Shown here: positions 1 through 21,485 of the stretch, one piece after another
How positions within the stretch are numbered: the stretch's first letter is position 1
Layout: each line of letters begins with the position of its first letter
NCBI RefSeq assembly: GCF_000711885.1
Contig: NZ_KL543995.1
Location: 182,010 to 246,009 of the forward strand
Direction of reading: 5' to 3'
Length of the DNA: 64,000 nucleotides
DNA from: Chromobacterium haemolyticum DSM 19808
GTDB taxonomy: Bacteria; Pseudomonadota; Gammaproteobacteria; Burkholderiales; Chromobacteriaceae
Notes under the pieces: model-generated
Told to the model about the DNA's origin: nothing
The model's database searches: none
Seen by the model: the letters and a program-made list of their open reading frames with translations, nothing else
Position numbers and translations under genes: made by a program

Positions 1-3000
1 CGCGAGGCGGCTCCGTTGGCCGGACGCGTGGTGGCCTTGTTCCCCGGCCAGGGCGCGCAGTACGTGAATATGGGCCGCGATATCGCCAACGATTACCCGG
101 CGATGCGCGAAACGCTGGAAGGTCTGGACGCCGCGGCGCACGCCGACGGGCTGCCGTTGCCGTCCGCGTCCATCTTCCCGCCGCCGGCCTTCGACGCGGA
201 AACGGCGGATCGCCAGATGGCGGAACTGACCCAGACCCGCACGGCGCAGCCGGCGATCGGCGCGATCAGCGCCGGCTACTACAAACTGTTGAGCGGCCTG
301 GGCCTGCGTCCGGACTTCCTGGCCGGCCACAGCTACGGAGAAGTGACCGCCTTGTGGGCCGCCGGCGTGCTGAGCGACGAGGACTTCTACCGGACGTCGC
401 TGGCGCGCGGCGCGGCGGTGGCCAGCCCGGTGCCGGGCGGCGAGCCGGGCGCGATGCTGGCGGCTTCGCTGCCGGAGAGCGAGGCCAGCGCGGTGCTGGA
501 ACGCTTCCCGGAGCTGGTGGTGGCCAATTACAACTCGCAGCAGCAACTGGTGTTCGGCGGTGCCAGCGACATCATCCGCCAGGCCCATGAGTTTCTGAAC
601 GAGCGCAAGGTGCGCAGCCAAGTGCTGGCGGTGTCCGCGGCCTTCCACACCGACTTCGTGCGCCACGCTTGCGCGCCGTTTGAAGCCAGCTTGGCTGGGA
701 TTCCGTTCCAGGCGCCGCGGGCCGCGGTGTACTCCACCGCCAGCGGCGAGCGCCACGCCGACGACCCGGCCAAGATCAAGCAGTCGCTGATCAGCCAACT
801 GGTCAGCCCGGTGCGCTTCCAGCAAACCATAGAACGCATTCATCAGCAGGGCGGTTACTTGTTCGTCGAGATCGGTCCCAAGGGCATCTTGGGCAAGCTA
901 GTGGCGGACATTCTCAAGGACAAGCCGCACGCGGTGGTGTCGCTGAACCCCAGCGCCAACGGCGAGGAAGCCCTGCAATTCAAACGCGCGCTGGCGCGGC
1001 TGGCGGTGGAGGGCGTGGAGCTGAGCTCCACCGATCCGCAGGCGGCCTTGCCCTTGGCCGCGGCGCCGAAGAAAAAGTCGCTGACTTACAAGATGAGCGG
1101 CGGTTTCTTCTACTCGGAGAAAGCCAAGCAGCGCCGCGCGCACGCCATGCGCAAGGATACGCGCGTCATCGACGCCTTCATCGACGAGCGGCTTGCCGCC
1201 AGCTCGCCGCCGCTGGCGCCGGAGACGGAGCGGGATAGTAGGGTAGTGGTGGAAACTTTGGTCGACAACAGGGACGACATGATGTGGCTGGAGCCCATCC
1301 ATGTCATAAGCGGAGAGGGAATCATGCAACGCAGTAGCTCGGACAACGAAGTATTGAGCGTATTGGACGCGCAGATCCAGGCGCAGAACATGCTCAGCCA
1401 GGTGCATCAGCAGTTCCAGCTGAATCAGAAGGATTACATCCAGCTGCTGGATTCGCTGATGACCAAGCAATACACCTTGCTGGAGAAATTCCAGGGCAGC
1501 CAGCAATTGACGGAGGTGGTGGCCAGCCTGGGCCAGAGCCTGCAGCTGCTGGACAAGAATCAGGAACTCTACCACGTTAATCACGAGCACTATTTTGACA
1601 ACCAGCAAGCCTTGCTGGGCGCCGATGTCGCCGCGCGCGGCGGCCAGGTGGCCGCGCGTCTGCAACAGCGCGCGCCGCTGGAAGTGAGCTTGCCGACCCC
1701 GCGCGCAGCGGTGGAATTGCCGGCGGCCGCTCCCCTTGCGCAGCCTGCCGTCGCCCCTTCCGCGCCGGTGGCCGCCGTGACCGAGGTTCAGGCGCCCAAG
1801 CCGAAGCTGCAGGACATCCCGCAAGCCGTCGCCCCGGCCGCGCCGGCTCCGATGGCCGCGCCCGCTCCTGTAGCCGCCGCGCCGGCCGCCGTCGCGATCA
1901 GCGCCGAAGACCAGGCCCTGATTCAGCGCTTCGAGGCCTTGACCGAGGCTGACCTGATCAAGCAACTGATCGACATCGTCAGCGACCGCACCGGCTACCC
2001 GGCGGACATGATCAATGAAGAAATGGACCTGGAAGCGGACCTGGGCATCGATTCGATCAAGCGCCTGGAAATCTTCGGCGCCATGTTCGACCAACTGTCC
2101 GCCGAAGTGCCGCACTTCCAGGACATGGAAAAACAGAAGGACATGGAAACCTTCGACATCGACGCCTTCAGCAACATTCGCAAGATGGGCGGCTTCTTCA
2201 AGCAAACCATCTCCGAACTGCTGACCGAACTGAAGCAGGGTTCCGCCGCCGCGCCGGCCGCGGAAGCCGCTCCGGCTCCGGTGGAAGCGCCGGCCCCGGT
2301 TTCCAGCGAACCCGCCTTGCACGAAACCCCGGCGGCGGAAGCCAAGCCCTTGCGTCAGCTGGGCGTGGTGTCGTCCACCAAGAAACTGGTGGCCGACGTT
2401 GCCGTGGAGGACTCCGCAGCAAAAAAATCCCTAGCTGAGCCCCGGGAGACGGCATCTGCCCTCGCTCAGCAATCCCCTGTAAGTGATGCCCATACGGTAA
2501 CCGCGTCCATCCATCGTTTTCAGGCGCGGAAACAGGCTTTGCCCAAGCCGGACCTGCTGGAGCTGGCCGCCGGCCGGCTCTGGCTGCTGACCGACGACGG
2601 CAAGGGTTTAAGCGAAGAAGTGGCCAAACAGCTGCTGGCCCACGGCCAACAGGTGGCGCGGCTGGTATTCAAGTGGCAGCAGGCCAAGGGCCAGCGCAAG
2701 GCGATCAAGCACGTGAACGACTACGTGTTGGAACGCGCCGACGAGCTGGCGCTGGAGGACGTGCTGTCGCGCATCGCGGTGGCCGAAGGGCAGGTGGGTG
2801 GCTTCATTCATCTGCAGGCGCCGGCCGGCAACGTCAAATCGCTGGCCAACGCCTTCCCCGCAGCCGAGTACGACACCGCGCAAGCGCTGTTCCTGCTGGC
2901 CAAGCTGCTGCAGCCAGCGTTGGCGCAGCCCGGGCCGGGACGCGCGTGCTTCTTCGTGGCCAGCCAGCTGGACGGCGAGCTGGGCACCGCCCGGCGCGCC

Positions 3001-4974
3001 GCCTTCCCGGTGGCCGCCGCTGGCGTCAGCGGCCTGAGCAAGGCGCTGAACATAGAGTGGGAAGATGTGTTCTGCCGCACGGTGGACTTCGATCCCAAAT
3101 GCGGCAAGAGCGCCATCGCCGCGATGTTGCTGGAAGAGCTGCGCGACGTGCAGTCCGACGTGGCCGAAGTGGGCCGCGGCGTCAAGGGCGAGCGGATGAC
3201 GCTGGGCTTCGAGGCGGCGCCGACCGATCCTCAGGCCGTGGCCAATATCGACGCCAAGACCGTGTTCCTGGTCACTGGCGGCGCGCGCGGCATCACCGCC
3301 GAGTGCGTGATCGCGCTGGCCAAGCGTTATCCGGCCCGCTTCGCGCTGCTGGGCCGCACCCGCATCGACGCGCCGCTGCCGGAGTGGGCGGAAGGCGGCG
3401 GCGAATTGGCCGAGCTCAAGGCGCGCGCCATCCGCCACCTGCAGCAGCAGGGCGAGACGGTGACGCCGGTCAAGGTGGACGCCTTGCTCAAGGACGTGCT
3501 CCAGCTGGCCGAGGTGCGCGCCACCATCGCCAGTATCGAGCAGGCCGGCGGCCAGGCCATCTATCTGGCTTGCGACATCGGCGACGCCAAGGATGTGGCG
3601 CGGGCGGCTGCGGAGGCGCAGCGGCAGCTGGGGCCCATCCGCGGCATCATCCACGGCGCCGGCAACCTGGCGGACAAGCGCATCGAGAAAAAGACCCCGG
3701 CGGATTTCCGTTCGGTGTTCCACACCAAGGTGAAAGGGCTGGAGAACCTGTTGGCGGCGGTCAAGCCGGACGGCTTGCGCCACCTGGTGCTGTTCTCTTC
3801 GGTGTCGGGCTTCTTCGGCAACGCCGGCCAGACCGATTACGCGATGGCCAACGACGCGCTGAACAAGTTCGCCTACCTGTACCAGACCCTGTACCCGAAA
3901 CAGCAGGTGCGCAGCATCAACTGGGGTCCGTGGGACAGCGGCATGGTCAACGACGTGCTGAAGAAGGCCTACGCCGACCGCGGCCTGGCCATCATCCCCA
4001 CCTCCGTCGGCGCGCAGTTTTTCGTCGACGAGTTCGCCGCCGGCCTGGTGCCGCAGGTGATCGTGGGCGGCGGCAGCTACAAGGTGGGGCGCAAGCAGAA
4101 GACCCTGCCGGCGCTGACCCGGGTGGAGCGCGAGCTGGACCCGGCCGTCAACGGCTTCCTGGCCGATCACGTGGTGGGCGGGCAGCCTGTGCTGCCGGCC
4201 ACCGCCGCGGCCGGCTGGATGGTGCAGCTGTGCGAAGACCTGCTGCCGGGCTACCGGCTGGAGACGCTGACGGACTTCCGCGTGCTCAAGGGCGTGGTGT
4301 TCGACGCCGGAGAGCAGCGGCGCTTCATCGCCGAACTGAGGCCGGTGGACGAAGCCGGCGGCAACGGCGACCGCCACACGCTGGACGTGAGCATCTTCAA
4401 CCAAGTGGACGGCGCCGCGCTGAACCGCTACCAGGCGCGGGTGACCATGACCCGGCTGGCGGCGGAGCAGCCGGCGGACGGGCCGAAGGCGCCGACCGGC
4501 GCGCCGCTGGAGCATCCGCCGCTGTACGGCGACATGCGCGACGGCGCCTGGCTGTTCCATGGCCCGGCCTTCCGCGGCGTACAGACCTTGTTCCGTCTCG
4601 ACGGCCAGGGCCTGCAAGCGGGCGGCCGGCTGGCCGCCGCGGCCGGACAGGGGCAGTTCCCGGTGAACTCCTTCAACCCCTACCTGGCGGACGTGGCGTT
4701 GCAAACGCCGCTGGTCTGGCTGATGTCGCAGTCGGACAAGGCGGGGCTGCCGCTGCAGATCGCCGAGTGGCGGCAGTACGCGCCGCTGGCTTTCGACCAG
4801 GCCTTCTATCTGAGCATGGCGGTCACGGCGCAAACCGCGACCACTCTGCTGGCCGACGTCATCGTCCACAGCGCCGACGGCAAGGTGTACAGCAAGCTTT
4901 CCGGCTTGCAGTTCACCGTGTCGAAGAAGCTGCGGCAGTTGATGTGCGACCCGGAGGCCAGTGTGGCGGTGTGA
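1..4974 (+). CDS. PfaA-like iterative synthase: AT-ACP-KR-DH, 5' end outside window
   Basis: Large multidomain synthase of the PUFA-synthase (PfaA) type. The frame is open from base 1 with no stop, so the gene almost certainly begins upstream and the missing part should be the ketosynthase; TTG at 16 is only the first possible start inside the window. Counting from base 16: acyltransferase at about 1-310 with GQGAQ and the GHSYG nucleophile (Ser106); a Gln-rich probable coiled linker at 430-530; Ala/Pro linkers; one carrier domain with the LGIDSIKR site (Ser680); ketoreductase with TGGARG near 1087-1092 and active Tyr1275 (YAMAN); a C-terminal dehydratase-like domain with an HxxxGxxxxP motif (His1385). 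Only one carrier domain is visible, whereas EPA/DHA synthases carry four to nine in tandem. It heads the biosynthetic locus that continues to 21485. Confidence 0.9.
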   Translation, partial: REAAPLAGRVVALFPGQGAQYVNMGRDIANDYPAMRETLEGLDAAAHADGLPLPSASIFPPPAFDAETADRQMAELTQTRTAQPAIGAISAGYYKLLSGLGLRPDFLAGHSYGEVTALWAAGVLSDEDFYRTSLARGAAVASPVPGGEPGAMLAASLPESEASAVLERFPELVVANYNSQQQLVFGGASDIIRQAHEFLNERKVRSQVLAVSAAFHTDFVRHACAPFEASLAGIPFQAPRAAVYSTASGERHADDPAKIKQSLISQLVSPVRFQQTIERIHQQGGYLFVEIGPKGILGKLVADILKDKPHAVVSLNPSANGEEALQFKRALARLAVEGVELSSTDPQAALPLAAAPKKKSLTYKMSGGFFYSEKAKQRRAHAMRKDTRVIDAFIDERLAASSPPLAPETERDSRVVVETLVDNRDDMMWLEPIHVISGEGIMQRSSSDNEVLSVLDAQIQAQNMLSQVHQQFQLNQKDYIQLLDSLMTKQYTLLEKFQGSQQLTEVVASLGQSLQLLDKNQELYHVNHEHYFDNQQALLGADVAARGGQVAARLQQRAPLEVSLPTPRAAVELPAAAPLAQPAVAPSAPVAAVTEVQAPKPKLQDIPQAVAPAAPAPMAAPAPVAAAPAAVAISAEDQALIQRFEALTEADLIKQLIDIVSDRTGYPADMINEEMDLEADLGIDSIKRLEIFGAMFDQLSAEVPHFQDMEKQKDMETFDIDAFSNIRKMGGFFKQTISELLTELKQGSAAAPAAEAAPAPVEAPAPVSSEPALHETPAAEAKPLRQLGVVSSTKKLVADVAVEDSAAKKSLAEPRETASALAQQSPVSDAHTVTASIHRFQARKQALPKPDLLELAAGRLWLLTDDGKGLSEEVAKQLLAHGQQVARLVFKWQQAKGQRKAIKHVNDYVLERADELALEDVLSRIAVAEGQVGGFIHLQAPAGNVKSLANAFPAAEYDTAQALFLLAKLLQPALAQPGPGRACFFVASQLDGELGTARRAAFPVAAAGVSGLSKALNIEWEDVFCRTVDFDPKCGKSAIAAMLLEELRDVQSDVAEVGRGVKGERMTLGFEAAPTDPQAVANIDAKTVFLVTGGARGITAECVIALAKRYPARFALLGRTRIDAPLPEWAEGGGELAELKARAIRHLQQQGETVTPVKVDALLKDVLQLAEVRATIASIEQAGGQAIYLACDIGDAKDVARAAAEAQRQLGPIRGIIHGAGNLADKRIEKKTPADFRSVFHTKVKGLENLLAAVKPDGLRHLVLFSSVSGFFGNAGQTDYAMANDALNKFAYLYQTLYPKQQVRSINWGPWDSGMVNDVLKKAYADRGLAIIPTSVGAQFFVDEFAAGLVPQVIVGGGSYKVGRKQKTLPALTRVERELDPAVNGFLADHVVGGQPVLPATAAAGWMVQLCEDLLPGYRLETLTDFRVLKGVVFDAGEQRRFIAELRPVDEAGGNGDRHTLDVSIFNQVDGAALNRYQARVTMTRLAAEQPADGPKAPTGAPLEHPPLYGDMRDGAWLFHGPAFRGVQTLFRLDGQGLQAGGRLAAAAGQGQFPVNSFNPYLADVALQTPLVWLMSQSDKAGLPLQIAEWRQYAPLAFDQAFYLSMAVTAQTATTLLADVIVHSADGKVYSKLSGLQFTVSKKLRQLMCDPEASVAV

Positions 4975-4983
4975 CGCGAGCAA

Positions 4984-5005
4984 GGCCGCGCCCGCGGGCG
5001 CGGCC
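4984..5005. terminator. GC-rich perfect hairpin after the PfaA-like gene
   Basis: Ten-base arms around a two-base centre (GGCCGCGCCC / GGGCGCGGCC) lie nine bases after the stop. There is no T-run, so it may only attenuate or protect the mRNA end. The rest of 5006-5177 is very GC-rich, holds another imperfect GCCGCC hairpin near 5095-5135, and shows no gene. Confidence 0.4.
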
Positions 5006-5177
5006 GGTCCTACAGCCGAGGCGCGGCGGCGGAGCGTTCGCCTGACCGCCGCCGCACTCGAAATCGGCCCGCGCCGGTTCAATCCTGATCCCGCGCCGCC
5101 GCCCGCCGCTTCAACAGCGGCCGGCGGCGGAGGGGGACGGTTGCGCCCAAGGTTTGGGAATGTTGGCTCTACTTTCA

Positions 5178-5442
5178 GGATCTGTTGACGTTTGTTTTTC
5201 TGTTGCGTTCGCTCCCAGGCGGATGCAGCGCGCGAAGCCCGCCTCGCCGCAGTGTCATTCACTGCCAGAGGCGGGCGACAAAGCGAGGCGCCGGCTGGGA
5301 GCGAACCCAGGGGCTGACCGGGAAAAGAACCCTCTACGGCGTTGTAAGGCTTGGCCTTGGTTCACCAAGGCCTGCGCCCTCCGCCTTGTAGAACGCACTT
5401 TTCTCGGTCAGCGCAGCGAGAAAAACAAACGTCAACAGATCC
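5178..5442. mobile_element. 265-bp MITE-like element with perfect 24-bp terminal inverted repeats
   Basis: The left end (5178-5201, beginning GGATCTGTTGACG) and right end (5419-5442, ending CGTCAACAGATCC) are perfect 24-bp inverted repeats. A nested 12-bp inverted repeat GTTCGCTCCCAG (5207-5218) / CTGGGAGCGAAC (5295-5306) lies inside. There is no transposase; the inside codes for nothing recognisable. I see no clear target duplication. It ends 16 bases before the start codon of the next synthase gene, so it must influence how that gene is transcribed. Confidence 0.75.
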
Positions 5443-5458
5443 AAGACACGGAAGCATT

Positions 5459-8400
5459 ATGGAAGAAATTGCCATTATCGGATTAGGTTGCCTGTTTCCA
5501 GGCGCCGAAACGCCAGAACAGTACTGGCGCAACCTGCTGGAGCGGCGGGATTGCACCTCGGAATTGAGCCGGGAAGAGCTGGGCGTGGACCCGGCGCTGT
5601 ATCGCCATCCGGTGCCGGGCACCGCGGACAAGATCGCCTACAACAAGAACGGCCATGTGCGCGGCTTCAAGCTGGACGCCGGCCGCTACCGTCTGCCCGC
5701 CGCGCAGTTGGAGGCGCTGGACCCCTTGTTCCAATGGACGCTCTACGCGGCGGAACAGGCGCTGATCGACGCCGGACAGGGCGCCGCCCACAGCGCCGAG
5801 GCGCTGGAGCGCTGCGGCCTGATCATCGGCAATATCGGCATGCCCACGCACGCCGGCAAGAAACTGCTCAACGGCTTCTATCAAGGCATCCTGGAGCCCT
5901 ACGTCCAGGAGCTGCTGCAACGCGACGATTTCCATTTCCGCCAGCCCTGGCAGGCGGAAGGCTTGTCCGATCTCAATCTGATGACCGGCAGCCACAACGC
6001 CACGCTGGCGGCCCAGGCGCTGGGCCTGGCCGGCCCCAGCTTCGCGCTGGACGCGGCCTGCGCCTCGGCGCTGTACGCCATCCGCGTGGCCAGCTATTAC
6101 CTGCAAAGCGGCAAGGCCGATCTGATGCTGGCCGGCGCGGTTTGCCACGCCGACCACATCTATATCGATCATGGCTTCAATGTGCTGCAGGCCTTCCCGG
6201 CGGACGGCCAATCGGTGCCGTTCGACCGCAACTCCCAGGGCCTGAAGGCCGGCGAGGGCGCCAGCGTGATCGCGCTCAAGCGCTACGCCGACGCGGTGCG
6301 CGACAAGGACCGCATCTACGGCGTGATCGAATCCATAGGCCTGTCCAACGACGGCGGCGCCAAGCACATTCTGGTGCCGGACCTCAACGGCCAGTTGCTG
6401 TCGCTGAAACGCGCCTACGACGGCGTGGACAAGAACATCGATTATCTGGAATGCCACGCCACCGGCACCCCGGTGGGCGACCAGGTGGAGCTGGGTTCGG
6501 TGGAGACCTTCTTCGCCGATCAGGCGCAGCGGCCGTTGATCGGCGCCAACAAGGGCAATATCGGGCATATGCTGACCGCCTCCGGCATGGCCAGCATTCT
6601 CAAGGTGCTGCTGGCGATGCGCAGCGGCGTGATTCCGCCGACGCTGAACGTGGAAGACATGGTCAGCACCCCGGGCGGCCAGCTGGACATCCGCCACGTG
6701 GTGCGCGATACCACGCCGTGGCCGCAACGCGGCCAGGCCAAGCGCGCCGGCATCAACGCCTTCGGCTTCGGCGGCGTCAACGGCCACATGGTGCTGCGCG
6801 AACACCGCGCCGACGCGCCGGCGGCCGCCTGGCCGCAGCTGCCGGCGGAGCAACAAAGCCTGGCCATTGTCGGCGTGGGCGTGGCCCTGGCCGACACCGA
6901 AACCCCGGACGCCTTGCTGCGGACGGTGGCCGAGGGCCGCAGCCACTTCCGTCCGCTGCCGCGCACCCGCTGGCTGGGTCTGGAGGGGCGCGCCGACGTG
7001 CTGGGCGCGCGCGGCTACCGTCAGGCCCCGGCGGGCGCCTATATCGAGCAGTTCGATTTCGACTGCAAACGCTTCAAGCTGCCGCCCAAGGTGGTGGGCA
7101 GCCATCTGCTGTCGCATTTGTTCCTGATGCCCATCGCCGAGCGCGCCTTCTACGACGCCGGCTATCAGCTGGACGGCCGGAAGCGCAATATCGCCGTCAT
7201 CGTCGCCGGCGACGTGGACTACAGCTGCTCGCGCTACCAGGCGCGCAACGAAATGGCCTGGCAGGTGCGAGACAGCCTGGCGCACAGCGGCATCTCGCTG
7301 AGTGAGGCGCAGACCGCGGCGCTGGAAACCATCGTCAAGGACAGCTTGTTCCCGGAGCCGTATCCGGAGGGCATCACCGGCGGCATCGGCAATGTGGTGG
7401 CCAGCCGCATCGCCGCCCACCTGAAGCTGGACGGCCCGGCCTTCTCCTTGTGCGCGCATGAAAACGCCGCCTTCAAGGCGATAGAGCTGGCGCAATTCAT
7501 GTTGTCCGAGCAATTGGTGGACGCGGTGATCGTCGCCGGCGGCAGCTTCGCCGGCGGCCTGGAAAACGTGTTGTGGGCGCCGCGTCGCGGCGCCGGCCAT
7601 GTCGACGCGCCGGTGGGCGAGGGCGGCGGCGTGGTGGTGCTCAAGCGCGAGCAGGCGGCGCTGGACGCCAAGGACCGCGTCTACGCGGTGATGCGCGGCC
7701 TGGCCATCGGCCACGCCTGCGGCGACAGTACCGAATTCCAACCCGTGGCGGACGCGGTGGCGCGTTCGGCGGCGGCGGCCTTGCGCCAAGCCGGCGCGGA
7801 TCCGGCGTCGGTGGGGTATCTGGAGCTGAGCGGCGGCGCGCTGGCCAGCGACAACCAGGTGGAGATCGACGGACTGTCCCGGGTTTACCGCGACAGCGGC
7901 GCCGCCGCCGGTTCGGTGGCCGCCAACTACGGCCAGCTGGCCTCGGCCCAAGGCATCGTCAGCGTGATCAAGGCCGCGCTCTGCCTGTATAGCCGGCAAC
8001 TGCCCGGCGCGGCGGCGTTGGCCGCCTATCCGGAGGACGCGCTGCGCGCCGTGTTCCGCGCCGGAGAAACCGGCGCGGCCTGGCTGGCGCCGGCCGGCGG
8101 CCTGAGGCTGGCGGCGGTCAACAGCCTGGGCCTGGACCGAGGCTACGCCCACATGATTCTGCAGGAGCCCGGCGAGGCCAATCGCCGGGAAGCCCGGACG
8201 CCGACGCCGCCGCAGACGGGCGGTCCGGCCCTGGTCGCCACCGTGCACACCGGCCGCGAACACACCATCGCCGAGATGATAGTCAACGACGCCAACCGCG
8301 CGCTGTTCGGCAACGTCACGCCCTGGCGGCGTCCGCAGCCGGCGGCGCAACAGGCGCAGCCGCTGCCCGCCGCCGCCGTGTCGGCGGACAGCGAGGCGCC

Positions 8401-13795: not shown

Positions 13796-13870
13796 GGGGA
13801 CCTCGAAAAGCCGTAGCGAGCACGGAGCAACGCAGCTTTCGGGCCACGCGGTAGGTTTTTCGAGGTCCCC
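13796..13870. mobile_element. GGGGACCTCGAAAA-family inverted-repeat element, short copy (75 bp)
   Basis: Ends are GGGGACCTCGAAAA and TTTTTCGAGGTCCCC, perfect inverted repeats over most of their length, with GGAGCAACGCAGCTTTC inside. It is flanked on both sides by CAAA (13792-13795 and 13871-13874), a likely four-base target duplication. A longer relative lies at 15183-15355. It ends 18 bases before the next start codon. Confidence 0.7.
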
Positions 13871-13888: not shown

Positions 13889-15145
13889 ATGGATTACCGA
13901 GCCAAGACCAGCGTCAAGAACATCGTGCTGACCGGCCCCACCGGCGTGCTGGGGGGCCGTTTGCTGCAGGAAATACTGGCCACCACCGACGCCAACGTCT
14001 ATTGCGTGGTGCGGGCCGAGAACAAGGACGCCGCGCGCGCCCGCATCGAAGACGTGCTGTATTGCTACGATGAAGGCCGCAAGCTGTCCACCGAGGCCTG
14101 GCGCATCATTCCGGTGCTGGGCGACATCAGCCAGCCCATGCTGGGCCTGGACGCCAGCGCCTACCGCGACCTGGCCCACCTGGCGGACCTGGTGCTGCAT
14201 TGCGCCGCCAACGTCAGCCTGGTGGCCTCCTACAACAAGATCGCCCCGGTCAACGTGGGCGGCACCGCCAACCTGATCGAACTGTGCCTGGCCGGCAAGG
14301 CTCCGCTGGTGTTCACCTCCAGCTTCAGCATGGTGGGCGACAAGCTGTATCAGCCGGACTTCGTGCTGCGCGAAACCGATCTGGACGTGGGCCAGGGCTT
14401 CGTCAACATGGATTACGAGCGCTCCAAGTTCACCGCCGAGCGCATGGTGCACGAAGCCGGCGAGCGGGGCCTGAACTGGGTCATCGTGCGTCCGGGCAAT
14501 ATCTGGGGCGACAGCCGGACCGGCTGCTACCCGCTGAAGCAGACCAAGGTCAAGGGCATTTACTACGAGATGCTCAAATCGCTGGTGGAAACCGGGCTCA
14601 CCTTCGCCTCCGACGAAGCCTTCGATATCTCGCCGGTGGACTACGTGGCCCAGGCCACGCTGTTCGCGGCGATGAATCTGCAATCCAGCAATCGCCGCAC
14701 CTACAACCTGACCAATCCGCGCCCGATCAGCTACGACGGTATCGTCGCCCGCCTGCGCGGCTACGGCTACATCCTGCGCGACGTGCCGTCCAAGGAGTAC
14801 TTCGAAGCGCTGCAGGAAGGCCGCATACACCGCGGCGGCGCCGGCTACCGTTCCACCTTCACCGATCTGATGGCCATCTTCTACGACGGCAGCGATTGCA
14901 AGGAACACGCCAAGTACGACACCAGCGAGATCCAGGAACTGCTGGCCAATACCGACATCCGCTGCCCGGACTCGGACCAGGCACTGTTTGGGCGCTATCT
15001 GGACTACGCGTGCAAGGTGGGCTTCCTCAACGCCCCGTCGGCGCAAACCCCGCTGGCGGAAATCAAGCGTCACACCAGCATGGCCGGCGGCTATATGGAG
15101 AGCCTGTACGACGCCGACCTGAGCGACGCGGCGGCGGTGCGCTGA
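13889..15145 (+). CDS. Thioester reductase (SDR-e family release enzyme)
   Basis: 418 residues from ATG 13889, preceded by GAGGTGAAG. It has the extended-SDR nucleotide site LTGPTGVLGG, the catalytic Tyr176/Lys180 pair in NMDYERSKF, and a WGDSRTG loop. This is the fold of the terminal reductase domains of NRPS/PKS enzymes and of stand-alone thioester reductases. Expected role: NAD(P)H-dependent release of the carrier-bound chain as an aldehyde, which the aminotransferase could convert to a terminal amine. Stand-alone thioester reductases are part of the zeamine and fabclavine loci, which supports the pathway call. The next gene starts one base after the stop. Confidence 0.85.
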   Translation: MDYRAKTSVKNIVLTGPTGVLGGRLLQEILATTDANVYCVVRAENKDAARARIEDVLYCYDEGRKLSTEAWRIIPVLGDISQPMLGLDASAYRDLAHLADLVLHCAANVSLVASYNKIAPVNVGGTANLIELCLAGKAPLVFTSSFSMVGDKLYQPDFVLRETDLDVGQGFVNMDYERSKFTAERMVHEAGERGLNWVIVRPGNIWGDSRTGCYPLKQTKVKGIYYEMLKSLVETGLTFASDEAFDISPVDYVAQATLFAAMNLQSSNRRTYNLTNPRPISYDGIVARLRGYGYILRDVPSKEYFEALQEGRIHRGGAGYRSTFTDLMAIFYDGSDCKEHAKYDTSEIQELLANTDIRCPDSDQALFGRYLDYACKVGFLNAPSAQTPLAEIKRHTSMAGGYMESLYDADLSDAAAVR

Positions 15146-15146
15146 G

Positions 15147-16019
15147 ATGCTGGCCGACGAGGAAGCGCTGATTGAAGCGCCGGGGGAGCTCGAAAAACCG
15201 TCGCGAGCGGTTCGAGAGCAAGACGCACCGCGCGCAGCGACCGAGATAGTACAAGGAGTACAGCGAGGGAGCCTGTGGCTGAACGAGGCTGTCGCCTCGC
15301 ACGCCAACGGAGCAACGCAGCTATCGGACCGCGCAGCAGGTTTTTCGAGGTCCCCACCGGCCGCGGAACTGCTGCTGGACTACCAGGTGCTAAGCAACGG
15401 CGAGCCGATAGGCCGGCTGCGCACCGAGCGCCGCCGCGGCTGGCTGGACGATCTGCCGGTGCTGCAGGTCAGCAACCGCATGGACCTGCGCTGCAGCGGC
15501 CTGTGGTTCGACTACTCGCTGCAATCGGACGAGAGCATGGACTTCGGCGCCGACGGCCTGTGCCGTTACGCCGGCGTCTCCGACGAGGACGGCGACAAGA
15601 CCGTGATCAAGGGCCGGCTGCGTCAGGGCGTGCTGACCCTGCGCCTGCACGACGGTCAGCTGGAAGTGCGCCGCTTCAAGCTGGGCGATTTCGACGCCAG
15701 CAGCGAAGACGCCGCCGAGCGCTTTCTCGTCGGCGGTGGGTCCGAGGCCACGCTGCGGGTGCTGGATCTGGAGCACTTCGACATCGACGAAGTCCGCTAT
15801 CAGCGGCTGCCGGACGAAACGCTGGACCTGCTGGGCCAGCCGCGGCGGACGAGGGTGGTGGCCTATCAATCCAAACGGCGCAAGATCAGCGGCACCGGCT
15901 GGTATCTGTCCGACGACGGCGGCGAAGTGCTGGTGCGCCAAAGCAGCCGCGAACGCGGCGACCACAACGAAGTGATATTGACCCATTGGGAAAGCAAACC
16001 ATGCCAAATCAAGACTTAG
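15147..16019 (+). CDS. Unknown beta-rich protein carrying an in-frame repeat insertion
   Basis: 290 residues. From about residue 71 (LLLDYQVLSNGEPIGRL) onward it looks like a small beta-barrel protein with alternating polar and hydrophobic strands, many Arg and Asp, and no signal peptide; I cannot name the family with certainty. Residues 13-70 are the translation of a 173-bp inverted-repeat element (15183-15355). Removing the element and one copy of a four-base duplication restores a continuous frame, with residues 1-12 joined directly to AAELLLDYQ. The protein may thus carry 59 extra residues, or translation may start later. It overlaps the next gene by 19 bases, so it is co-translated within the biosynthetic operon. 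Confidence 0.65.
   Translation: MLADEEALIEAPGELEKPSRAVREQDAPRAATEIVQGVQRGSLWLNEAVASHANGATQLSDRAAGFSRSPPAAELLLDYQVLSNGEPIGRLRTERRRGWLDDLPVLQVSNRMDLRCSGLWFDYSLQSDESMDFGADGLCRYAGVSDEDGDKTVIKGRLRQGVLTLRLHDGQLEVRRFKLGDFDASSEDAAERFLVGGGSEATLRVLDLEHFDIDEVRYQRLPDETLDLLGQPRRTRVVAYQSKRRKISGTGWYLSDDGGEVLVRQSSRERGDHNEVILTHWESKPCQIKT
15183..15355. mobile_element. GGGGACCTCGAAAA-family element, long copy inside a gene (173 bp)
   Basis: Ends GGGGAGCTCGAAAAACCG and GGTTTTTCGAGGTCCCC are inverted repeats matching the 75-bp element at 13796. GGAGCAACGCAGCTATC is also shared. Flanks are GCCG and ACCG, three of four bases equal. 173 plus 4 is 177, exactly 59 codons, so the insertion keeps the reading frame, and no stop occurs in it. 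Confidence 0.75.
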
Positions 16020-16780
16020 CCGTCACCCTGGTGCAAAGCGACATCGCTTGGGAGTCGGTGGATCAGAACCTGCAGCGGATGGAGCGCCACCTGAGCGCGG
16101 TGAACGACAGCCAGTTGATCGTGCTGCCGGAAATGTTCACCACCGGCTTTAGCATGCGGCCGGAAAAGATAGCCGAAACCATGGACGGCAAGGCGGTGCA
16201 ATGGCTGCGCGACACCGCGCGCGCCAAACGCGCCGACCTAGTGGGCAGCGTGGCGATAGAAGACCAGGGCCGCTACTACAACCGCCTGTTGTGGGCCAAG
16301 GCAGACGGCAGCCTGTTCAGCTACGACAAGAAGCATCTGTTCAGCTTCGCCGGCGAGCACGAGCACTACACCCCCGGCGACGCGCCGCTGATCGTCAAGG
16401 TGGACGGCTGGTCCGTGGCCGCCTTCGTCTGCTACGACCTGCGTTTCCCGGTCTGGTCGCGCAACAACAAGAGCCAATACGACCTGGCGCTCTACATCGC
16501 CAGCTGGCCGGAACGCCGGGCCAAGCACTGGCAAACGCTGCTGCCGGCGCGGGCGATAGAAAACCAGGCCTTCGTCATCGGCGTCAACCGCGTGGGCGTG
16601 GACGGCAACGACATCCGCTACAGCGGCGACTCCATGCTGATAGACCCGCTGGGCGACACCCTCTACCACGGCCGCCAGCTGGAAAGCGTGTATCAGGCCA
16701 AGCTGTCGCGCGCGCAGCTGGACGATGTGCGCGCTCAGTTTCCTTTCCTGAAGGATGCGGACCGTTATCAACTCGTTTGA
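16001..16780 (+). CDS. Nitrilase-superfamily amidase (YafV/Nit2-like)
   Basis: 259 residues from ATG 16001, overlapping the previous gene. The carbon-nitrogen hydrolase catalytic triad is intact: Glu44 (LPEMF), Lys110 (YDKKHLF) and Cys144 (VCYDLRFP). It is most like the omega-amidase group. In a housekeeping setting it would hydrolyse alpha-keto acid amides; here it lies inside the biosynthetic operon, so it may trim an amide on the product or recycle the amide form of the amino donor. That specific role is inference. It is followed by 94 bases before the exporter genes, with no strong terminator. Confidence 0.85.
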   Translation: MPNQDLAVTLVQSDIAWESVDQNLQRMERHLSAVNDSQLIVLPEMFTTGFSMRPEKIAETMDGKAVQWLRDTARAKRADLVGSVAIEDQGRYYNRLLWAKADGSLFSYDKKHLFSFAGEHEHYTPGDAPLIVKVDGWSVAAFVCYDLRFPVWSRNNKSQYDLALYIASWPERRAKHWQTLLPARAIENQAFVIGVNRVGVDGNDIRYSGDSMLIDPLGDTLYHGRQLESVYQAKLSRAQLDDVRAQFPFLKDADRYQLV

Positions 16781-16874
16781 CAGGGCGGCGGCAGTGAAAA
16801 GAGGCGGATAAGCCCTGCGGCTGCGCGGGGTTTTCTGCTGCTTAGGTTCTCCTTCGGCTCCTACGGAAAGTGAA

Positions 16875-17822
16875 ATGCACCAAGCCACAACAAGAGAAAA
16901 AGTCATCGAATTCCAATCGGTGACCAAGCGCTTCAACGACTACACCGCGGTCAACGACGTGTCGCTGGACATCTACCGCGGCGAATTCGTCGCCCTGCTG
17001 GGCCCCAACGGCGCCGGCAAGACCACGTTGGTGGAAATGCTGGAGGGGCTGAAGCAACCGGAGGCCGGCTCCATCCGCATCCTGGGCCGCAGCTGGCAGC
17101 AGGACGAAAGCTATCTGCGCCACCGGCTGGCCGGGGTGCTGCAGGAGTCCTTGTTCATCAACAAGCTGCGGGTGGACGAAACCGTCAACCTGTTCGCCAG
17201 CTTCTACGGCCGGCCGCGCAGCCGCGCCTACGAGGTGCTGGAACTGGTGGAGCTGATCCCCAAGCGCAAGGTCATGGTGGAAGGGTTGTCCGGCGGCCAG
17301 CGTCAGCGGCTGGCCCTGGCCATCTCCATTCTCAATCAGCCGGAAATCCTGATTCTGGACGAACCCACCACCGGCCTGGACCCGCAAGTGCGGCGCGGCA
17401 CCTGGGATATCCTGCGCAAGCTCAACAAGGAGCTGGGCTCCACCATGTTGCTGACCACCCACTACATGGAAGAAGCCGAATACCTGTGCGACCGCATCTG
17501 CATCATGCATCAGGGCCGCATCCTGACCCAGGGCACGCTGGACGAACTGCTGGCGGCGCACGAGCCGGGCGAAGTGGTGGAATACCGGGTGAAGAGCGGC
17601 GCCGGCGGCGCCGAACCCAAGCACAAGGACAACATCATCAGCTACAGCTACGACCAGGCATCCGCCAAGGCGCGGCTGCTGGTGCGCAACGGCTCCGCCT
17701 TCCTGTTCCGCCTGTCCGAGTTCATCCGCGAACAACAAATCGACATCGACGAAATCATCGTGCGCAAAAAAACGCTGGATGATTTATTCCTGTCACTGGC
17801 CGGCCGAGGTTTCCATGAATAA
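16875..17822 (+). CDS. ABC transporter ATP-binding subunit (DrrA/CcmA type)
   Basis: 315 residues. It has Walker A GPNGAGKTT, signature LSGGQRQRLA, Walker B ILILDEPTTGLD and the H-loop TTHYMEEAE. The C-terminal region is of the drug-exporter (DrrA) type. It pairs with the ABC-2 permease that overlaps it by eight bases. Placed behind the biosynthetic genes, it most likely exports the product and gives self-resistance. Confidence 0.92.
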   Translation: MHQATTREKVIEFQSVTKRFNDYTAVNDVSLDIYRGEFVALLGPNGAGKTTLVEMLEGLKQPEAGSIRILGRSWQQDESYLRHRLAGVLQESLFINKLRVDETVNLFASFYGRPRSRAYEVLELVELIPKRKVMVEGLSGGQRQRLALAISILNQPEILILDEPTTGLDPQVRRGTWDILRKLNKELGSTMLLTTHYMEEAEYLCDRICIMHQGRILTQGTLDELLAAHEPGEVVEYRVKSGAGGAEPKHKDNIISYSYDQASAKARLLVRNGSAFLFRLSEFIREQQIDIDEIIVRKKTLDDLFLSLAGRGFHE

Positions 17823-18924
17823 CGCCTTGCTCAATCTGATCATCACCCAATTCCGCCAATACCTGCGCGAGCCGCAAATCCTGTTCTGGTCCTTTGGCTT
17901 CCCGCTGCTGCTGGTGTGGTTGCTGGGCGTGTCCTTCTCCGGCGGCGAAATCAAGGAACGGACCATAGGCGTGGTGCTGCCGGCCAATGTGCAGGAACAG
18001 GCCGCGGTGCGCGCCTGGATCAGCAAGGTGGAAGCCCGCAACCAGCCGCTGTCCAGCGTCATCAACGCCGACGAGATCAAGCGCGGCCACCTGATCCGCA
18101 TGAAATACCGCTTCCAGTACTACCCGGACCGGGAATCGGTGCTGCGCGGCCTCAAGCGAGGCGACGTGCAAGTGTTCATGGAACCCAGCGCCGACAGCGG
18201 CAAACGCATCTACTACCTGGACCCGCAGAACAACGAGGCGCTGCTGACTTACTTCTTCCTCGGCGACGACTCGGACGCGCTAAGCCAGGCGGTGGACAAG
18301 AATATGTCGGTGCTGGACAGCCCCGGCCTGCGCTATATCGACTTCCTGGTGCCCGGCCTGGTGGCGATGGCGGTGATGGAAACCTGCCTGATCGCCGTCG
18401 GCTGGTCGCTGATCGAAAAGCGCGCCACCCGCGTCACCCGGCAGATGCGCATCACCCCGATGCGCAAGACCGATTTTCTGCTGGCCCATGTGCTGGCCTG
18501 CCTGGTGTTCAGCCTGCTGGAGACCCTGGTGCTGTATCTGTTCGCCAGCAGTTATTTCGACGTGCACGCCCAGGGCGGGGCGCTGCCCTTCATCGTGCTG
18601 CTGCTGGCCGGCAATGTCTGCTTCGCCGGCATCGCCATACTGGCCGCCTCGCGCGCCACCAAGGCGCAGACCGCCAACGGCCTGCTGGAGATGACCATTC
18701 TGTTCCTAGTGATCTTTTCCGGCATCTTCTTCAGCTACAAGCACTTCCCGGACTGGATGGTGTCGGTGATCGAGGTGCTGCCGCTGACCATACTCGCCGA
18801 CGGCATGCGCATGATTTTCGTCGAGGGGGCCGGGGTGCTGGAAATCGCCCGTTCGGCGGTGGTGCTCACGCTGATCGGCATTGCCGGCTTCGTCAGCGGC
18901 GCGCGGGTGTTCCGCTGGTACTAG
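17815..18924 (+). CDS. ABC-2 type permease (exporter)
   Basis: 369 residues from ATG 17815, inside the end of the ATPase gene. One N-terminal membrane helix (QILFWSFGFPLLLVWLLG), a roughly 150-residue extracytoplasmic domain, then about five helices (FLVPGLVAMAVMET onward), the usual layout of DrrB/YhfH-type ABC-2 permeases. A hairpin with a short T-run follows, so the exporter closes a transcription unit and the acylase gene downstream has a separate leader. Confidence 0.9.
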   Translation: MNNALLNLIITQFRQYLREPQILFWSFGFPLLLVWLLGVSFSGGEIKERTIGVVLPANVQEQAAVRAWISKVEARNQPLSSVINADEIKRGHLIRMKYRFQYYPDRESVLRGLKRGDVQVFMEPSADSGKRIYYLDPQNNEALLTYFFLGDDSDALSQAVDKNMSVLDSPGLRYIDFLVPGLVAMAVMETCLIAVGWSLIEKRATRVTRQMRITPMRKTDFLLAHVLACLVFSLLETLVLYLFASSYFDVHAQGGALPFIVLLLAGNVCFAGIAILAASRATKAQTANGLLEMTILFLVIFSGIFFSYKHFPDWMVSVIEVLPLTILADGMRMIFVEGAGVLEIARSAVVLTLIGIAGFVSGARVFRWY

Positions 18925-18934
18925 GGGCATGAGG

Positions 18935-18958
18935 CATCCGCTGCGCGGATGATGGTTT
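18935..18958 (+). terminator. Hairpin after the exporter permease
   Basis: CATCCGC / GCGGATG stem with a three-base loop followed by ATGGTTTT; a weak rho-independent terminator ending the exporter operon. Confidence 0.5.
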
Positions 18959-18986
18959 TGATTGCCGGGGCTGCCCGGCGAGCAGG

Positions 18987-19150
18987 GAGAGGATATTTGC
19001 TTGGCCAAATATCCTCTCCACTCCTAAAGGCCACCCTGCAAGCCTGGCCTGCGGCTTCCCGCCGGGGCCCGTCAGACCCGAGGCGCGGCTGAACTCGCGA
19101 TTTGCTAACGTCAAATCGCTCAGACAAAGCAGCCGCTTAAGACCTCGGGC
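18987..19150. other. Structured intergenic segment before the acylase gene
   Basis: Two clear inverted repeats: GAGAGGATATTTG / CAAATATCCTCTC (18987-18999 and 19006-19018, perfect 13-bp arms, six-base loop) and GCGATTTG / CAAATCGC (19097-19104 and 19112-19119). The second is nested in a longer imperfect repeat (GACCCGAGGCGCGGCTG against CAGCCGCTTAAGACCTCGGG). It holds no reading frame. It could be a mobile-element remnant or a leader structure of the acylase gene. Confidence 0.45.
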
Positions 19151-19319
19151 CTGGCACCCGTCGGCAGTCTTGAAGGGACCTGGGGCGCGTCGGATTCGTG
19201 TTTGTCTTCGCACCCAACAAGCGACTAAGGGCGCATCACTTGAGTCACTCGCCAGGCTGCAGGAGCAGGGGAGCCGCTGTGGCTGCAGCGCCATGAACGC
19301 ATTGAAAGGAGGAAGGGTA

Positions 19320-21485
19320 GTGAAACGCTTGATCCTCGCCCTATTGGGCATCGCCATGCTGTCCTTGCTGACGGCCTGCGAACTGGACGACGACGGCAAG
19401 CCGCGCGGCAGCCAGGTGCTGTGGGACCGCAGCGGCGTGCCGCACATCTACGCCGCTCGCGCCGACAGCCTGGCCTACGCCTTCGGCCGCGCCCAGATGC
19501 AGGCGCATCCGGAGTTGCTGCTGAGGCTGTACGCCCAGGGCCGCGGCCGCGGCGCTGAGTACTACGGCGCGGTGTTCGAGGCCGGCGAACCCTTTCCCAG
19601 CAATATGGCGGAAGTAGACCGCCTAGTGCGCGCCATGGGTTTCCCCGAGCGCTCCAAACAATGGCTGCAACAGCAAAGCCCGCGCATGCGCGCCTACCTG
19701 GACGCCTTCGTCGCCGGCGTCAACGACCAGGCCGCGGCCAGTGGCGGCCTGAGCCCGGCGGCGCGCGCGGTGTTGCCGGTGCGCAGCGAAGATGTGCTGG
19801 CCCACACCCTGCGCATCTTCTTCAGCTATCTGAGCGGCGCCACCGCCACCGGCGCGGCCAATTGCTCGCTGATCTACCCGGACGCGGTGGCCACGCCCGT
19901 CAATCTGATCGGCGGCTCCAACGGCTGGGCGCTGGGGCCGGCCAAGAGCCGTTCCGGCAACGCCATGCTGCTGGCCAACCCGCATTTGCTGTGGGGCGGC
20001 AGCCACACCTGGTTCGAAGCCCAGTTCAAGAGCCCGGAATACGATATCTACGGCGCCACCCTGGTGGGCCTGCCGGTGATGCGCATCGGCTTCAACCAGC
20101 GGCTGGGCTGGGTGCATACCGTCAACACCCAGGACGGCTGCGACCTCTATCAACTCAAGCTCAGCGGCCGGCAATACCTGCTGGACGGCGTGGCGCGCGA
20201 TTTCGAAACCAAGCGCGAAACCCTGTATATCCGCCAGCCGGACGGCAGCCTGCAAGCCGAGCAACTGACCTTGCGCCGCGCCGAGCAGGGCCCGGTGTTC
20301 GACAAGGACGGCCAGAGCTACGCGCTGCGCATCGTCGGCGTCGACCAGCTCCAGACACCCGGCGTGCTGGAACAATGGTGGGACATGGCGCAGGCGCCTG
20401 ACTTCCTGGCCTTCCGCAAGGTGGTGGCGCGGCTGCAAAATCCTTACCACAACATTATCTACGCCGACGCCCAGCGCAATATCTGGGCGGCCTTCGGCGG
20501 CCTGACCCCGCGTCGAGCCGGCGGCGACGCCGCCTACTGGGCGCAGCCGGTGGACGGCAGCCGCAGCGATCTGATCTGGCGCCAGGCGCTGCGCCTGGAC
20601 GAATTGCCGCAGGCGACGAATCCGGCCAGCGGCTGGGTGCAAAACTCCAACAGCGCGCCCTGGTATATGAGCAAGCCGGCGCTGGACCCGGCCGCCTACG
20701 CCGCTTATCTGTCGCCGCGGATCTCGCCCTTGCTGCGCGAACAGCGCGGCATCGAGCTGATCGAACAGACTCCAAGCTTCACGCTGGATACGCTGCTGAG
20801 CGCCAAGCACGACACCCGGCTGCTGCTGGCGGACCGGGTGCTGGACGATTTGATCGGCTATGCGCGCGCTTCCGGCGACGCCGGCCTGATTGCCGCGGCG
20901 CAGGTGCTGGCCCAATGGGACCGGCGCAGCGACGCCGCCAGCAAGGGCGCGGTGCTGTTCGCCGCCTGGGTGGCGGCCTCCGGCGGCGAAGACGCCTTGC
21001 CTTACCGGCAGAAGGCGGACCCTGCGCAGCCTTACAGCACGCCGGCCGGCCTGCGCGACGCCGGTTTCGCGCTGAGCAAGCTGGGCGCGGCGGTCCAGGG
21101 GTTGCAACAAGCCGGCGTGCCGCTGGACGTCGCCTTTGGCGAAGTGTACCGGCTGCGGCGCGGCCCCGCCGGCGGCGCGGCGCGGCTGGACCAGCCGGCC
21201 AGCGGCGGCGCCGAGGGCCTGGGGGCTTTCCGCACCTTCAGCTATATCGGCGATAGCGACGGCCGCCAGCGCGTCATCTTCGGCGACACGTTCACCGCGC
21301 TGGTGGAGTTTGGCCGGCCGCTGCGCGCCAAGGTGATCAATACCTATGGCAACAGCAGCCTGCCGCAATCGCCTTACTACGGCGACCAGTTGCCGCTGGC
21401 GGCGCAAAACGGCATGCGCGACGCCTTGCTCAAGCGCGAGCAGGTGGAGGCGGCGCTGGCCAAGCGCGAGTGGTTCCGCCGCTAG
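19320..21485 (+). CDS. Penicillin-acylase-family (Ntn-hydrolase) lipoprotein
   Basis: 721 residues from GTG 19320, chosen because AGGAGG lies seven bases upstream and the product then begins with a lipoprotein signal ending LLTAC (Cys near residue 20). The body is a penicillin/AHL acylase precursor: WDRSGVPHIYA and the alpha-chain region, then the maturation site LIGGSNGWALG with Ser200 as the expected N-terminal nucleophile of the beta chain, and LLANPHLLWGG. Members of this family self-cleave and remove acyl groups from amides. Anchored in the periplasm next to the exporter, it could activate an acylated precursor during export, or it could degrade AHLs or inactivate the product; the first is favoured by position only. 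Confidence 0.85.
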   Translation: MKRLILALLGIAMLSLLTACELDDDGKPRGSQVLWDRSGVPHIYAARADSLAYAFGRAQMQAHPELLLRLYAQGRGRGAEYYGAVFEAGEPFPSNMAEVDRLVRAMGFPERSKQWLQQQSPRMRAYLDAFVAGVNDQAAASGGLSPAARAVLPVRSEDVLAHTLRIFFSYLSGATATGAANCSLIYPDAVATPVNLIGGSNGWALGPAKSRSGNAMLLANPHLLWGGSHTWFEAQFKSPEYDIYGATLVGLPVMRIGFNQRLGWVHTVNTQDGCDLYQLKLSGRQYLLDGVARDFETKRETLYIRQPDGSLQAEQLTLRRAEQGPVFDKDGQSYALRIVGVDQLQTPGVLEQWWDMAQAPDFLAFRKVVARLQNPYHNIIYADAQRNIWAAFGGLTPRRAGGDAAYWAQPVDGSRSDLIWRQALRLDELPQATNPASGWVQNSNSAPWYMSKPALDPAAYAAYLSPRISPLLREQRGIELIEQTPSFTLDTLLSAKHDTRLLLADRVLDDLIGYARASGDAGLIAAAQVLAQWDRRSDAASKGAVLFAAWVAASGGEDALPYRQKADPAQPYSTPAGLRDAGFALSKLGAAVQGLQQAGVPLDVAFGEVYRLRRGPAGGAARLDQPASGGAEGLGAFRTFSYIGDSDGRQRVIFGDTFTALVEFGRPLRAKVINTYGNSSLPQSPYYGDQLPLAAQNGMRDALLKREQVEAALAKREWFRR

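What the first reader, a model, noticed from the sequence alone, without database searches (positions are those of the whole stretch)
1..21485. Zeamine/fabclavine-like poly-amino chain biosynthesis locus built on a PUFA-type synthase
Seen: PfaA-like AT-ACP-KR-DH, KS-CLF-DH-DH, PfaD enoyl reductase fused to an aminotransferase, SDR, stand-alone thioester reductase, nitrilase-fold amidase, ABC-2 exporter and an acylase lipoprotein, all on one strand with overlaps. Known: zeamine (zmn) and fabclavine (fcl) clusters combine PUFA-type synthases with an aminotransferase and thioester reductase to make polyamine chains later joined to a peptide. Inference: this locus makes a related poly-amino lipid, perhaps free of any peptide part, since no NRPS gene lies between the synthase and the exporter. 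A single visible carrier domain and the acylase differ from what I recall of the known clusters.
Basis: partly seen in the sequence, partly recalled or inferred. Interest (0 to 1): 0.85.

Follow-up and report, generated by a model that had tools for sequence, protein, structure and literature searches.

The report
Peptide-free zeamine-type polyamine gene cluster
A group of Chromobacterium species carries the lipid-polyamine half of a known antibiotic pathway with its peptide half cleanly missing; it looks intact and probably makes a free membrane-active polyamine, as already described for one other bacterium.

Summary
The window starts inside a 2,255-aa PfaA-type gene whose KS lies just upstream. 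The locus matches zmn10-15 and zmn20-21 (zeamine) gene by gene, but lacks zmn16-19 (two NRPS, PKS, condensation protein). Five relatives carry that 25-kb block between amidase and exporter; here the gap is 94 bp without recognisable remnant. No ortholog of the condensation protein turned up in this genome or the four other cluster-bearing Chromobacterium genomes. The locus is in 5 of 19 genus genomes, under purifying selection. A second peptide-free lineage (Aquabacterium) does not group with it, so the peptide half was probably lost more than once. Xenorhabdus bovienii is the published precedent. Best reading: a free, exported, zeamine II-like polyamine. Two corrections: one ACP is normal for zeamine synthases, and the acylase also follows the exporter in two peptide-bearing relatives. 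Two leads: the 'nitrilase' is of the YafV (2-oxoglutaramate amidase) family and may pull glutamine-fed transamination forward; the acylase is kept although the peptide is gone. No metabolite data; the chemistry is inferred.

The parts
1..4974 (+). 3' part of PfaA-type synthase (KS-AT-ACP-KR-DH); whole gene 2,255 aa at G000:C2:180216-186983
   Evidence: TIGR02813 1621.9 bits, cut-off 1010.1; Pfam KS, AT, PP-binding, KR, PKS-type DH; one LGIDSIKR ACP motif
5459..9784 (+). PfaC-type KS-CLF-(degenerate DH)-FabA-type DH; ORF opens at TTG 5351, likely start 5459 (1,441 aa; my choice of start)
   Evidence: CLF has Glu in place of the active-site Cys (alignment by eye), as stated for Zmn11 in PMC3547906
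9785..12877 (+). PfaD-type enoyl reductase fused to class III aminotransferase (1,030 aa)
   Evidence: TIGR02814 597.8 bits over 449.25; PF00202 192.1 bits
12874..13638 (+). SDR ketoreductase (zmn13/fclF counterpart)
   Evidence: PF00106 165.4 bits; synteny
13889..15145 (+). Stand-alone thioester reductase (zmn14/fclG counterpart)
   Evidence: TIGR01746 235.9 bits over 213.35
15147..16019 (+). 290-aa protein with weak DUF6134 similarity; its N-terminal part is a miniature mobile element in frame
   Evidence: PF19630 E 9e-4, below cut-off; homolog in 11 of 13 loci
16001..16780 (+). YafV-family amidase (zmn15/fclH counterpart), 2-oxoglutaramate amidase by annotation of E. coli YafV
   Evidence: NF007757 275.1 bits over 249; 45% identical to E. 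coli YafV
16781..16874 (.). 94-bp junction where five relatives carry the 25-kb NRPS-NRPS-PKS-condensation block
16875..17822 (+). ABC exporter ATPase (zmn20 counterpart)
   Evidence: PF00005 119.8 bits; synteny
17779..18924 (+). ABC-2 permease (zmn21 counterpart)
   Evidence: PF12698 86.8 bits; synteny
19170..21485 (+). Penicillin-amidase-family lipoprotein acylase; real start probably near 19293-19320 (by eye)
   Evidence: PF01804 402.7 bits; cephalosporin acylase 1keh E 1.2e-141, Ser250 aligned with residue 1 of the beta chains; same 5 of 19 genus genomes as the fusion gene

Best explanation
A zeamine/fabclavine-type polyamine gene cluster that has lost its peptide half and works on its own. 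Inferred from characterised homologs: the PfaA/PfaC-type enzymes build a long chain from malonate on one ACP. Most cycles are fully reduced (KR, DH, PfaD enoyl reductase); in selected cycles the beta-keto group is transaminated instead by the aminotransferase fused to the enoyl reductase. The thioester reductase releases the chain as an aldehyde, which is transaminated again, giving a free zeamine II-like polyamine. The ABC-2 exporter, and perhaps the divergent MacB/HlyD/outer-membrane system, export it. I further infer that the YafV-type amidase removes the 2-oxoglutaramate left when glutamine is the amino donor, making each amination irreversible, and that the lipoprotein acylase acts on something other than the lost peptide. 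Shown here: gene content and order, family membership, intact catalytic motifs, absence of the peptide block, purifying selection, a second peptide-free lineage that does not group with it. Not shown: product, chain length, number of amines, amino donor, acylase substrate.
For: Synteny with peptide-bearing loci in G305, G349, G700, G718, G881. Protein lengths close to zmn10-15, 20, 21 as tabled in PMC3547906. Clean 94-bp junction in five species. No condensation-protein ortholog in the five Chromobacterium genomes; own NRPS stretches only about 24-42% similar to the block. dN/dS 0.02-0.27 for all genes compared. Catalytic motifs intact. X. bovienii fclCDEFGH plus transporter gives free polyamines, and the same genes do so in E. 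coli (PMC9113149). Amidase; MycA aminotransferase uses Gln and the zeamine domain is placed in its subfamily (PMC3870968 passages); an omega-amidase makes Gln transamination irreversible (PMC6302742 passages); fclH deletion cuts polyamine by over 70%.
Against: No metabolite data for any cluster-bearing Chromobacterium. The acylase, otherwise a candidate for trimming the peptide, is still there and still selected (dN/dS 0.21-0.27). No phosphopantetheinyl transferase gene was seen in the stretch read; one must come from elsewhere. The PKS-type DH leaves open whether the end is hydroxylated or deoxy. YafV assignment is by sequence only; E. coli YafV-type enzymes are linked to methionine salvage in the passages read, and I could not check whether the genome has a second, housekeeping copy.
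Confidence: 0.75

Rival explanations
1. The peptide half is supplied in trans by an NRPS/PKS elsewhere in the genome, so the product is still a zeamine/fabclavine-like conjugate.
For: The own genome has 23 condensation-domain matches on other contigs, and the acylase, a possible peptide-trimming enzyme, is retained.
Against: The fetched stretches cover all 23; similarity to the block is about 24-42%, and 22-26% for the condensation protein, against 53-74% between syntenic betaproteobacterial loci. Best matches to the condensation protein in the five genomes are 24-28% inside multidomain NRPS.
Confidence: 0.06
2. A decaying remnant: the cluster lost its peptide half and no longer does anything.
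For: Loss of half the pathway; a miniature element has entered the cluster at several places; the acylase and the 290-aa protein evolve faster than the rest.
Against: Pairwise dN/dS of 0.02-0.16 for the synthesis and export genes and 0.12-0.27 for the other two; frames open in the species compared; catalytic motifs intact.
Confidence: 0.07
3. A different chemistry: a lipid with a single amine or an aldehyde/alcohol end rather than a chain with repeated amines.
For: Only that the number of aminations cannot be read from sequence.
Against: The fused aminotransferase is among the most conserved proteins of the cluster (98.5-99% within the genus, 73-83% to other betaproteobacteria) and its motifs are nearly identical to those of the peptide-bearing loci.
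Confidence: 0.06
4. An EPA/DHA-type polyunsaturated fatty acid synthase.
For: PfaA and PfaD family models score above their cut-offs.
Against: Single ACP, aminotransferase fused to PfaD, dedicated thioester reductase and exporter; no separate PfaB-type gene among the ORFs scanned.
Confidence: 0.02

Closest known systems
Xenorhabdus bovienii fcl cluster making free polyamine and deoxy-polyamine (PMC9113149, parts 1 and 2 of 3 read; PMC7214866, passages)
   Same: Polyamine genes fclC-H and transport genes, NRPS and PKS genes missing or truncated; PKS-type DH at the end of the PfaA-type protein
   Different: X. bovienii keeps a cryptic fclJ (NRPS) homolog; here the junction is clean. An acylase is not mentioned in the passages seen; the 290-aa protein was not found in the gammaproteobacterial loci G881 and G952. 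Different class lineage, probably an independent loss
Zeamine cluster zmn of Serratia plymuthica RVH1 (PMC3547906; abstract, sections 8 and 11 and passages read)
   Same: zmn10-15 and zmn20-21 in the same order, single ACP, CLF with Glu, divergent ATPase, permease and HlyD genes
   Different: No zmn16-19; acylase of the penicillin-amidase family instead of the acylaminoacyl peptidase Zmn22; extra 290-aa protein; no zmn5 phosphopantetheinyl transferase seen
Zeamine-like betaproteobacterial clusters (G305, G349, G700 here; Chitinivorax tropicus and Paludibacterium paludis in PMC13291983, outline, section 7 and passages read)
   Same: Same genes and order at 63-83% identity for most proteins; acylase after the exporter in G305 and G349
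   Different: They carry the 25-kb NRPS/PKS/condensation block
E. coli YafV (2-oxoglutaramate amidase in the RefSeq annotation)
   Same: 45% identity over the whole length, equivalog cut-off passed, Glu-Lys-Cys motifs
   Different: Encoded here in a natural-product operon beside an aminotransferase; activity not tested
Glutaryl-7-ACA / cephalosporin acylase
   Same: Whole-length match, Ser nucleophile position
   Different: Lipoprotein-like N-terminus, in a polyamine cluster; substrate unknown

Membership tests
Zeamine/fabclavine-type polyamine synthase | PfaA-type KS-AT-ACP-KR with a single ACP | tested here: met
Zeamine/fabclavine-type polyamine synthase | PfaC-type KS-CLF-FabA-DH, CLF with Cys replaced by Glu | tested here: met
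Zeamine/fabclavine-type polyamine synthase | PfaD enoyl reductase fused to class III aminotransferase | tested here: met
Zeamine/fabclavine-type polyamine synthase | Stand-alone SDR, thioester reductase and carbon-nitrogen hydrolase in this order | tested here: met
Zeamine/fabclavine-type polyamine synthase | Product is a long chain with repeated amines | not testable with these tools
   needs mass spectrometry
Complete zeamine/fabclavine cluster (conjugate) | NRPS, NRPS, PKS and stand-alone condensation protein (zmn16-19) | tested here: not met
   94-bp gap in place of the block; no orthologs in the own NRPS stretches or by the condensation-protein probe
Peptide-free polyamine cluster (X. bovienii type) | fclC-H plus ABC exporter without NRPS/PKS genes | tested here: met
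Peptide-free polyamine cluster (X. bovienii type) | Frees polyamine as end product | not testable with these tools
   shown for X. bovienii in PMC9113149, not here
EPA/DHA PUFA synthase | Tandem ACPs in PfaA (features of the family partly recalled; PMC3547906 says most PUFA synthases have more than one) | tested here: not met
   one ACP motif, one PP-binding stretch
YafV-type omega-amidase | Equivalog model cut-off and Glu-Lys-Cys triad | tested here: met
YafV-type omega-amidase | Hydrolysis of 2-oxoglutaramate | not testable with these tools
   needs purified enzyme
Penicillin-amidase family (Ntn hydrolase) | Whole-length family match with Ser at the beta-chain start | tested here: met

The most novel reading that the evidence does not exclude
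The free polyamine, not the conjugate, is the stable unit of this family: the peptide half is an add-on lost at least three times (Chromobacterium, Aquabacterium, X. bovienii). The polyamine synthase runs on a glutamine / omega-amidase ratchet, each beta-amination being made irreversible by the YafV-type amidase encoded beside it. The retained lipoprotein acylase acts on the polyamine lipid itself, for example by removing an N-acyl cap during export.
Probability: 0.25. Interest if true: 0.62.

Novelty: new variant of a known kind. Interest (0 to 1): 0.42.

Why it matters
Free long-chain polyamines are described as the smallest active part of the fabclavine family (PMC9113149). Natural clusters that make only this part show which genes suffice, separate the roles of exporter and acylase from those of the peptide, and are simple objects for enzymology. 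A survey that requires NRPS and PKS genes nearby (PMC13291983, section 7) would not list them. The omega-amidase reading gives a testable role to a gene (zmn15/fclH) that the 2013 zeamine paper left without one; the later zeamine (2015) and fabclavine (2019) papers, known to me only as citations, were not read and may propose a role.

Tried and rejected
Peptide genes elsewhere in the genome: looked for with the G349 block proteins and the G305 condensation protein, rejected. A single origin of the peptide-free state: forcing the five Chromobacterium and two Aquabacterium loci together is rejected (delta lnL 109, AU p 3e-8). Plasmid-borne copies: 1,901 plasmid records match some part of the fusion protein, 0 cover 80% of it. 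Empty-site comparison: the exchanger to the right of the cluster is in 12 of 19 genus genomes, 7 of them without the cluster; in the 5 of those 7 that I read, no other gene of the own neighbourhood lay beside it (one further match about 16 kb away in G681), so no insertion site could be named. Polyamine as the cause of haemolysis in C. haemolyticum: considered and dropped, since jagaricins explain it (PMC12077216, passages). Fold of the 290-aa protein: the structure service was busy ten times; a profile search of the PDB gave nothing. A search for a phosphopantetheinyl transferase printed no rows and probably failed technically; an earlier run hit only C18 at 29%. Acylase relaxation specific to peptide-free clusters: not supported, since it is also among the more divergent proteins between peptide-bearing G305 and G349 (74%, against 83-94% for thioester reductase, SDR, amidase, fusion and exporter proteins; PfaA and PfaC are at 76% and 75%, the 290-aa type at 52%).
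Full report
What is there. The window lies on contig C2 (182010-246009) of a 5.03-Mb genome in 63 contigs. The first ORF is the end of a 2,255-aa PfaA-type gene that starts about 1.8 kb upstream, with KS, AT, one ACP, KR and a PKS-type DH. Then follow a KS-CLF-DH protein, a PfaD-aminotransferase fusion, an SDR, a thioester reductase, a 290-aa protein with weak DUF6134 similarity, a nitrilase-fold amidase, an ABC-2 exporter pair and an acylase lipoprotein. Upstream and divergent lie a MacB-type permease, ATPase, HlyD protein and outer-membrane factor (L005:13289-17643); in the Serratia cluster zmn6-8 (HlyD, ATPase, membrane protein) are also divergent (PMC3547906 table and figure legend). A Mn2+ riboswitch 95 bp after the acylase stop (21581-21725) starts the next unit.

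Who has it. Near full-length matches to the fusion protein (E at most 1e-190) are in 6 of 61 genomes of the family, five of them among the 19 of the genus; in 3 of 399 genomes drawn from the order, own included; in 2 of 394 drawn from the order of G139 (G881, G952); and in 1 of 12 of the family of G881, which is G881 itself. Among 274 genomes drawn from the class, the own genome alone gave a match over both halves in the listed part, which is sorted by E-value; the other listed matches cover one half. A scan of named genome contigs gave six loci from 45 candidate stretches: Chromobacterium haemolyticum, C. aquaticum and C. alkanivorans (99%), Janthinobacterium fluminis (79%), Aquabacterium sp. 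A7-Y (78%) and an Aquabacterium MAG (73%). The acylase occurs in exactly the same 5 of 19 genus genomes.

The peptide half. In G305, G349, G700, G718 and G881 a block of about 25 kb sits between amidase and exporter: two NRPS genes, a PKS gene and a stand-alone condensation protein. With the G349 proteins as queries the same four are found in order at 53-74% identity in G305, G700 and G718 and at 40-47% in G881. In the own genome and in G675, G678, G679 and G686 the gap is 94 bp, with no recognisable remnant. The own genome has 23 condensation-domain matches elsewhere; the stretches fetched cover all of them, and their similarity to the block proteins is about 24-42%, with 22-26% for the condensation protein. 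The condensation protein of G305, used as probe in 12 genomes, finds orthologs in G349 (65%), G718 (61%), G700 (58%) and G881 (40%); G952 has a stand-alone protein at 29% whose orthology is unclear; the five Chromobacterium genomes and Aquabacterium A7-Y have only matches of 24-30% in multidomain NRPS as their best (list cut at the weak end). So this locus most likely makes free polyamine.

Loss, and more than once. In a tree of five concatenated proteins from 13 loci the two Aquabacterium loci group with the peptide-bearing G305 and G349 (SH-aLRT 100, UFBoot 95), apart from Chromobacterium; the place of Chromobacterium next to G718 is not supported (19/52). Forcing the peptide-free loci together is rejected (AU p 3e-8). 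Since the distant G881 has the same block at the same place, absence is best read as loss, at least twice here; X. bovienii is a third case from the literature. Caveats: one tree, possible horizontal transfer, and only about 6.5 kb after the amidase is held for the MAG. A7-Y also lacks the exporter pair and acylase after the amidase in the 60 kb read.

Is it alive? Pairwise dN/dS of the own genes against three or four sister species is 0.070-0.084 (PfaA), 0.076-0.123 (PfaC), 0.031-0.052 (fusion), 0.081-0.155 (SDR), 0.064-0.100 (thioester reductase), 0.036-0.091 (amidase), 0.023-0.037 and 0.028-0.092 (exporter), 0.047-0.134 (three efflux proteins), 0.116-0.256 (290-aa protein) and 0.213-0.265 (acylase) (simple counting method). 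Expected catalytic residues are present in the own proteins (motifs chosen from recall and the papers): KS Cys-His-His, AT GHSYG, ACP Ser, PKS-type DH His and Asp, FabA-type His, aminotransferase Lys, thioester reductase YxxxK, amidase Glu-Lys-Cys, acylase Ser.

Mechanism. The polyamine steps follow the published models for zeamine (PMC3547906, sections 8 and 11) and fabclavine (PMC9113149, parts 1 and 2 of 3). The PKS-type DH does not by itself predict a deoxy product, because zeamine producers also have it (PMC9113149). Two additions are mine. First, the amidase passes the cut-off of the YafV equivalog model and is 45% identical to E. coli YafV, annotated as 2-oxoglutaramate amidase in RefSeq; its counterparts in all 13 loci are 45-50% identical to YafV. 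The MycA aminotransferase uses Gln, and the zeamine domain is placed in the same subfamily (PMC3870968, passages); a MycA structure is also among the PDB matches of the own domain, though weaker than glutamate-semialdehyde aminomutases. Transamination from Gln leaves 2-oxoglutaramate, whose hydrolysis by an omega-amidase makes the step irreversible (PMC6302742, passages). Loss of fclH lowers polyamine by over 70% (PMC9113149). Together this suggests a glutamine / omega-amidase ratchet. Searches of the held open-access library for omega-amidase with zeamine and for amidase with fabclavine and transaminase gave 0 papers; subscription papers are not held. Second, the acylase also follows the exporter in peptide-bearing G305 and G349 (69-70%), so it is probably older than the loss, yet it stays under selection after it; its substrate is then probably not the peptide alone. 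No acylase match was seen in the stretches read around G700, G718, G719, G881, G952 or in the MAG locus.

What is known. A search for Chromobacterium haemolyticum with zeamine gave 0 papers. The 2026 survey of hybrid clusters required NRPS, PKS and PUFA-type genes within 20 kb (PMC13291983, section 7), so it would not list this locus. The peptide-free polyamine cluster as a concept is published for X. bovienii, which limits novelty. I rate this a new variant: another lineage, a clean junction, an acylase and an extra conserved protein.

Noticed in passing
window 15183-15355 and 13797-13870; L005:15594-15676; L045:8924-9066: A miniature element of about 143-173 bp with 17-bp inverted ends (GGGG..CTCGAAAAACC) sits in frame in the N-terminal part of the 290-aa ORF in all five cluster-bearing species (two size forms), as a short copy between SDR and thioester reductase, as a partial copy in the HlyD gene, and in C. 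haemolyticum in frame inside PfaA, adding 51 aa between AT and ACP with a 5-bp repeat at the site (read by eye). The three own copies in 272,806 bases read all lie in this cluster (one more single-end match on C29); other loci (869,637 bases) gave one single-end match. Tn3-like ends are recalled, not tested.
   Followed up: partly
window 46156-47835: 559-aa dCTP-deaminase-type anti-phage protein (PADLOC dCTPase, 418.7 bits; Pfam) in a 41% GC island directly after a valyl-tRNA synthetase gene (43259-46090).
   Followed up: partly
window 21581-21725: yybP-ykoY manganese riboswitch (57.9 bits) before a Na/Ca-exchanger-family gene whose listed start (21656) lies inside the riboswitch, so the true start is probably later.
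   Followed up: no
G000:C18:72446-97129: Large NRPS genes (2,164, 4,028 and 2,868 aa) that may be the hml (jagaricin) cluster described for C. haemolyticum, C. rhizoryzae and C. alkanivorans (PMC12077216, passages); not tested.
   Followed up: no
window 23157-24137: Class A-type beta-lactamase-family gene (PF13354, 145.8 bits) shortly after the cluster, and an arginine-decarboxylase gene at 25741-27891.
   Followed up: no
L052:13847-14668: In the Aquabacterium MAG an ORF that reads like a phosphopantetheinyl transferase (by eye, no family search) follows the amidase gene, where other loci have the NRPS block or the exporter.
   Followed up: no
G675:C44:57065-76848: In the C. alkanivorans genome (G675) the exchanger lies about 20 kb from the acylase instead of next to it, so something entered or was rearranged at the right edge.
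   Followed up: no
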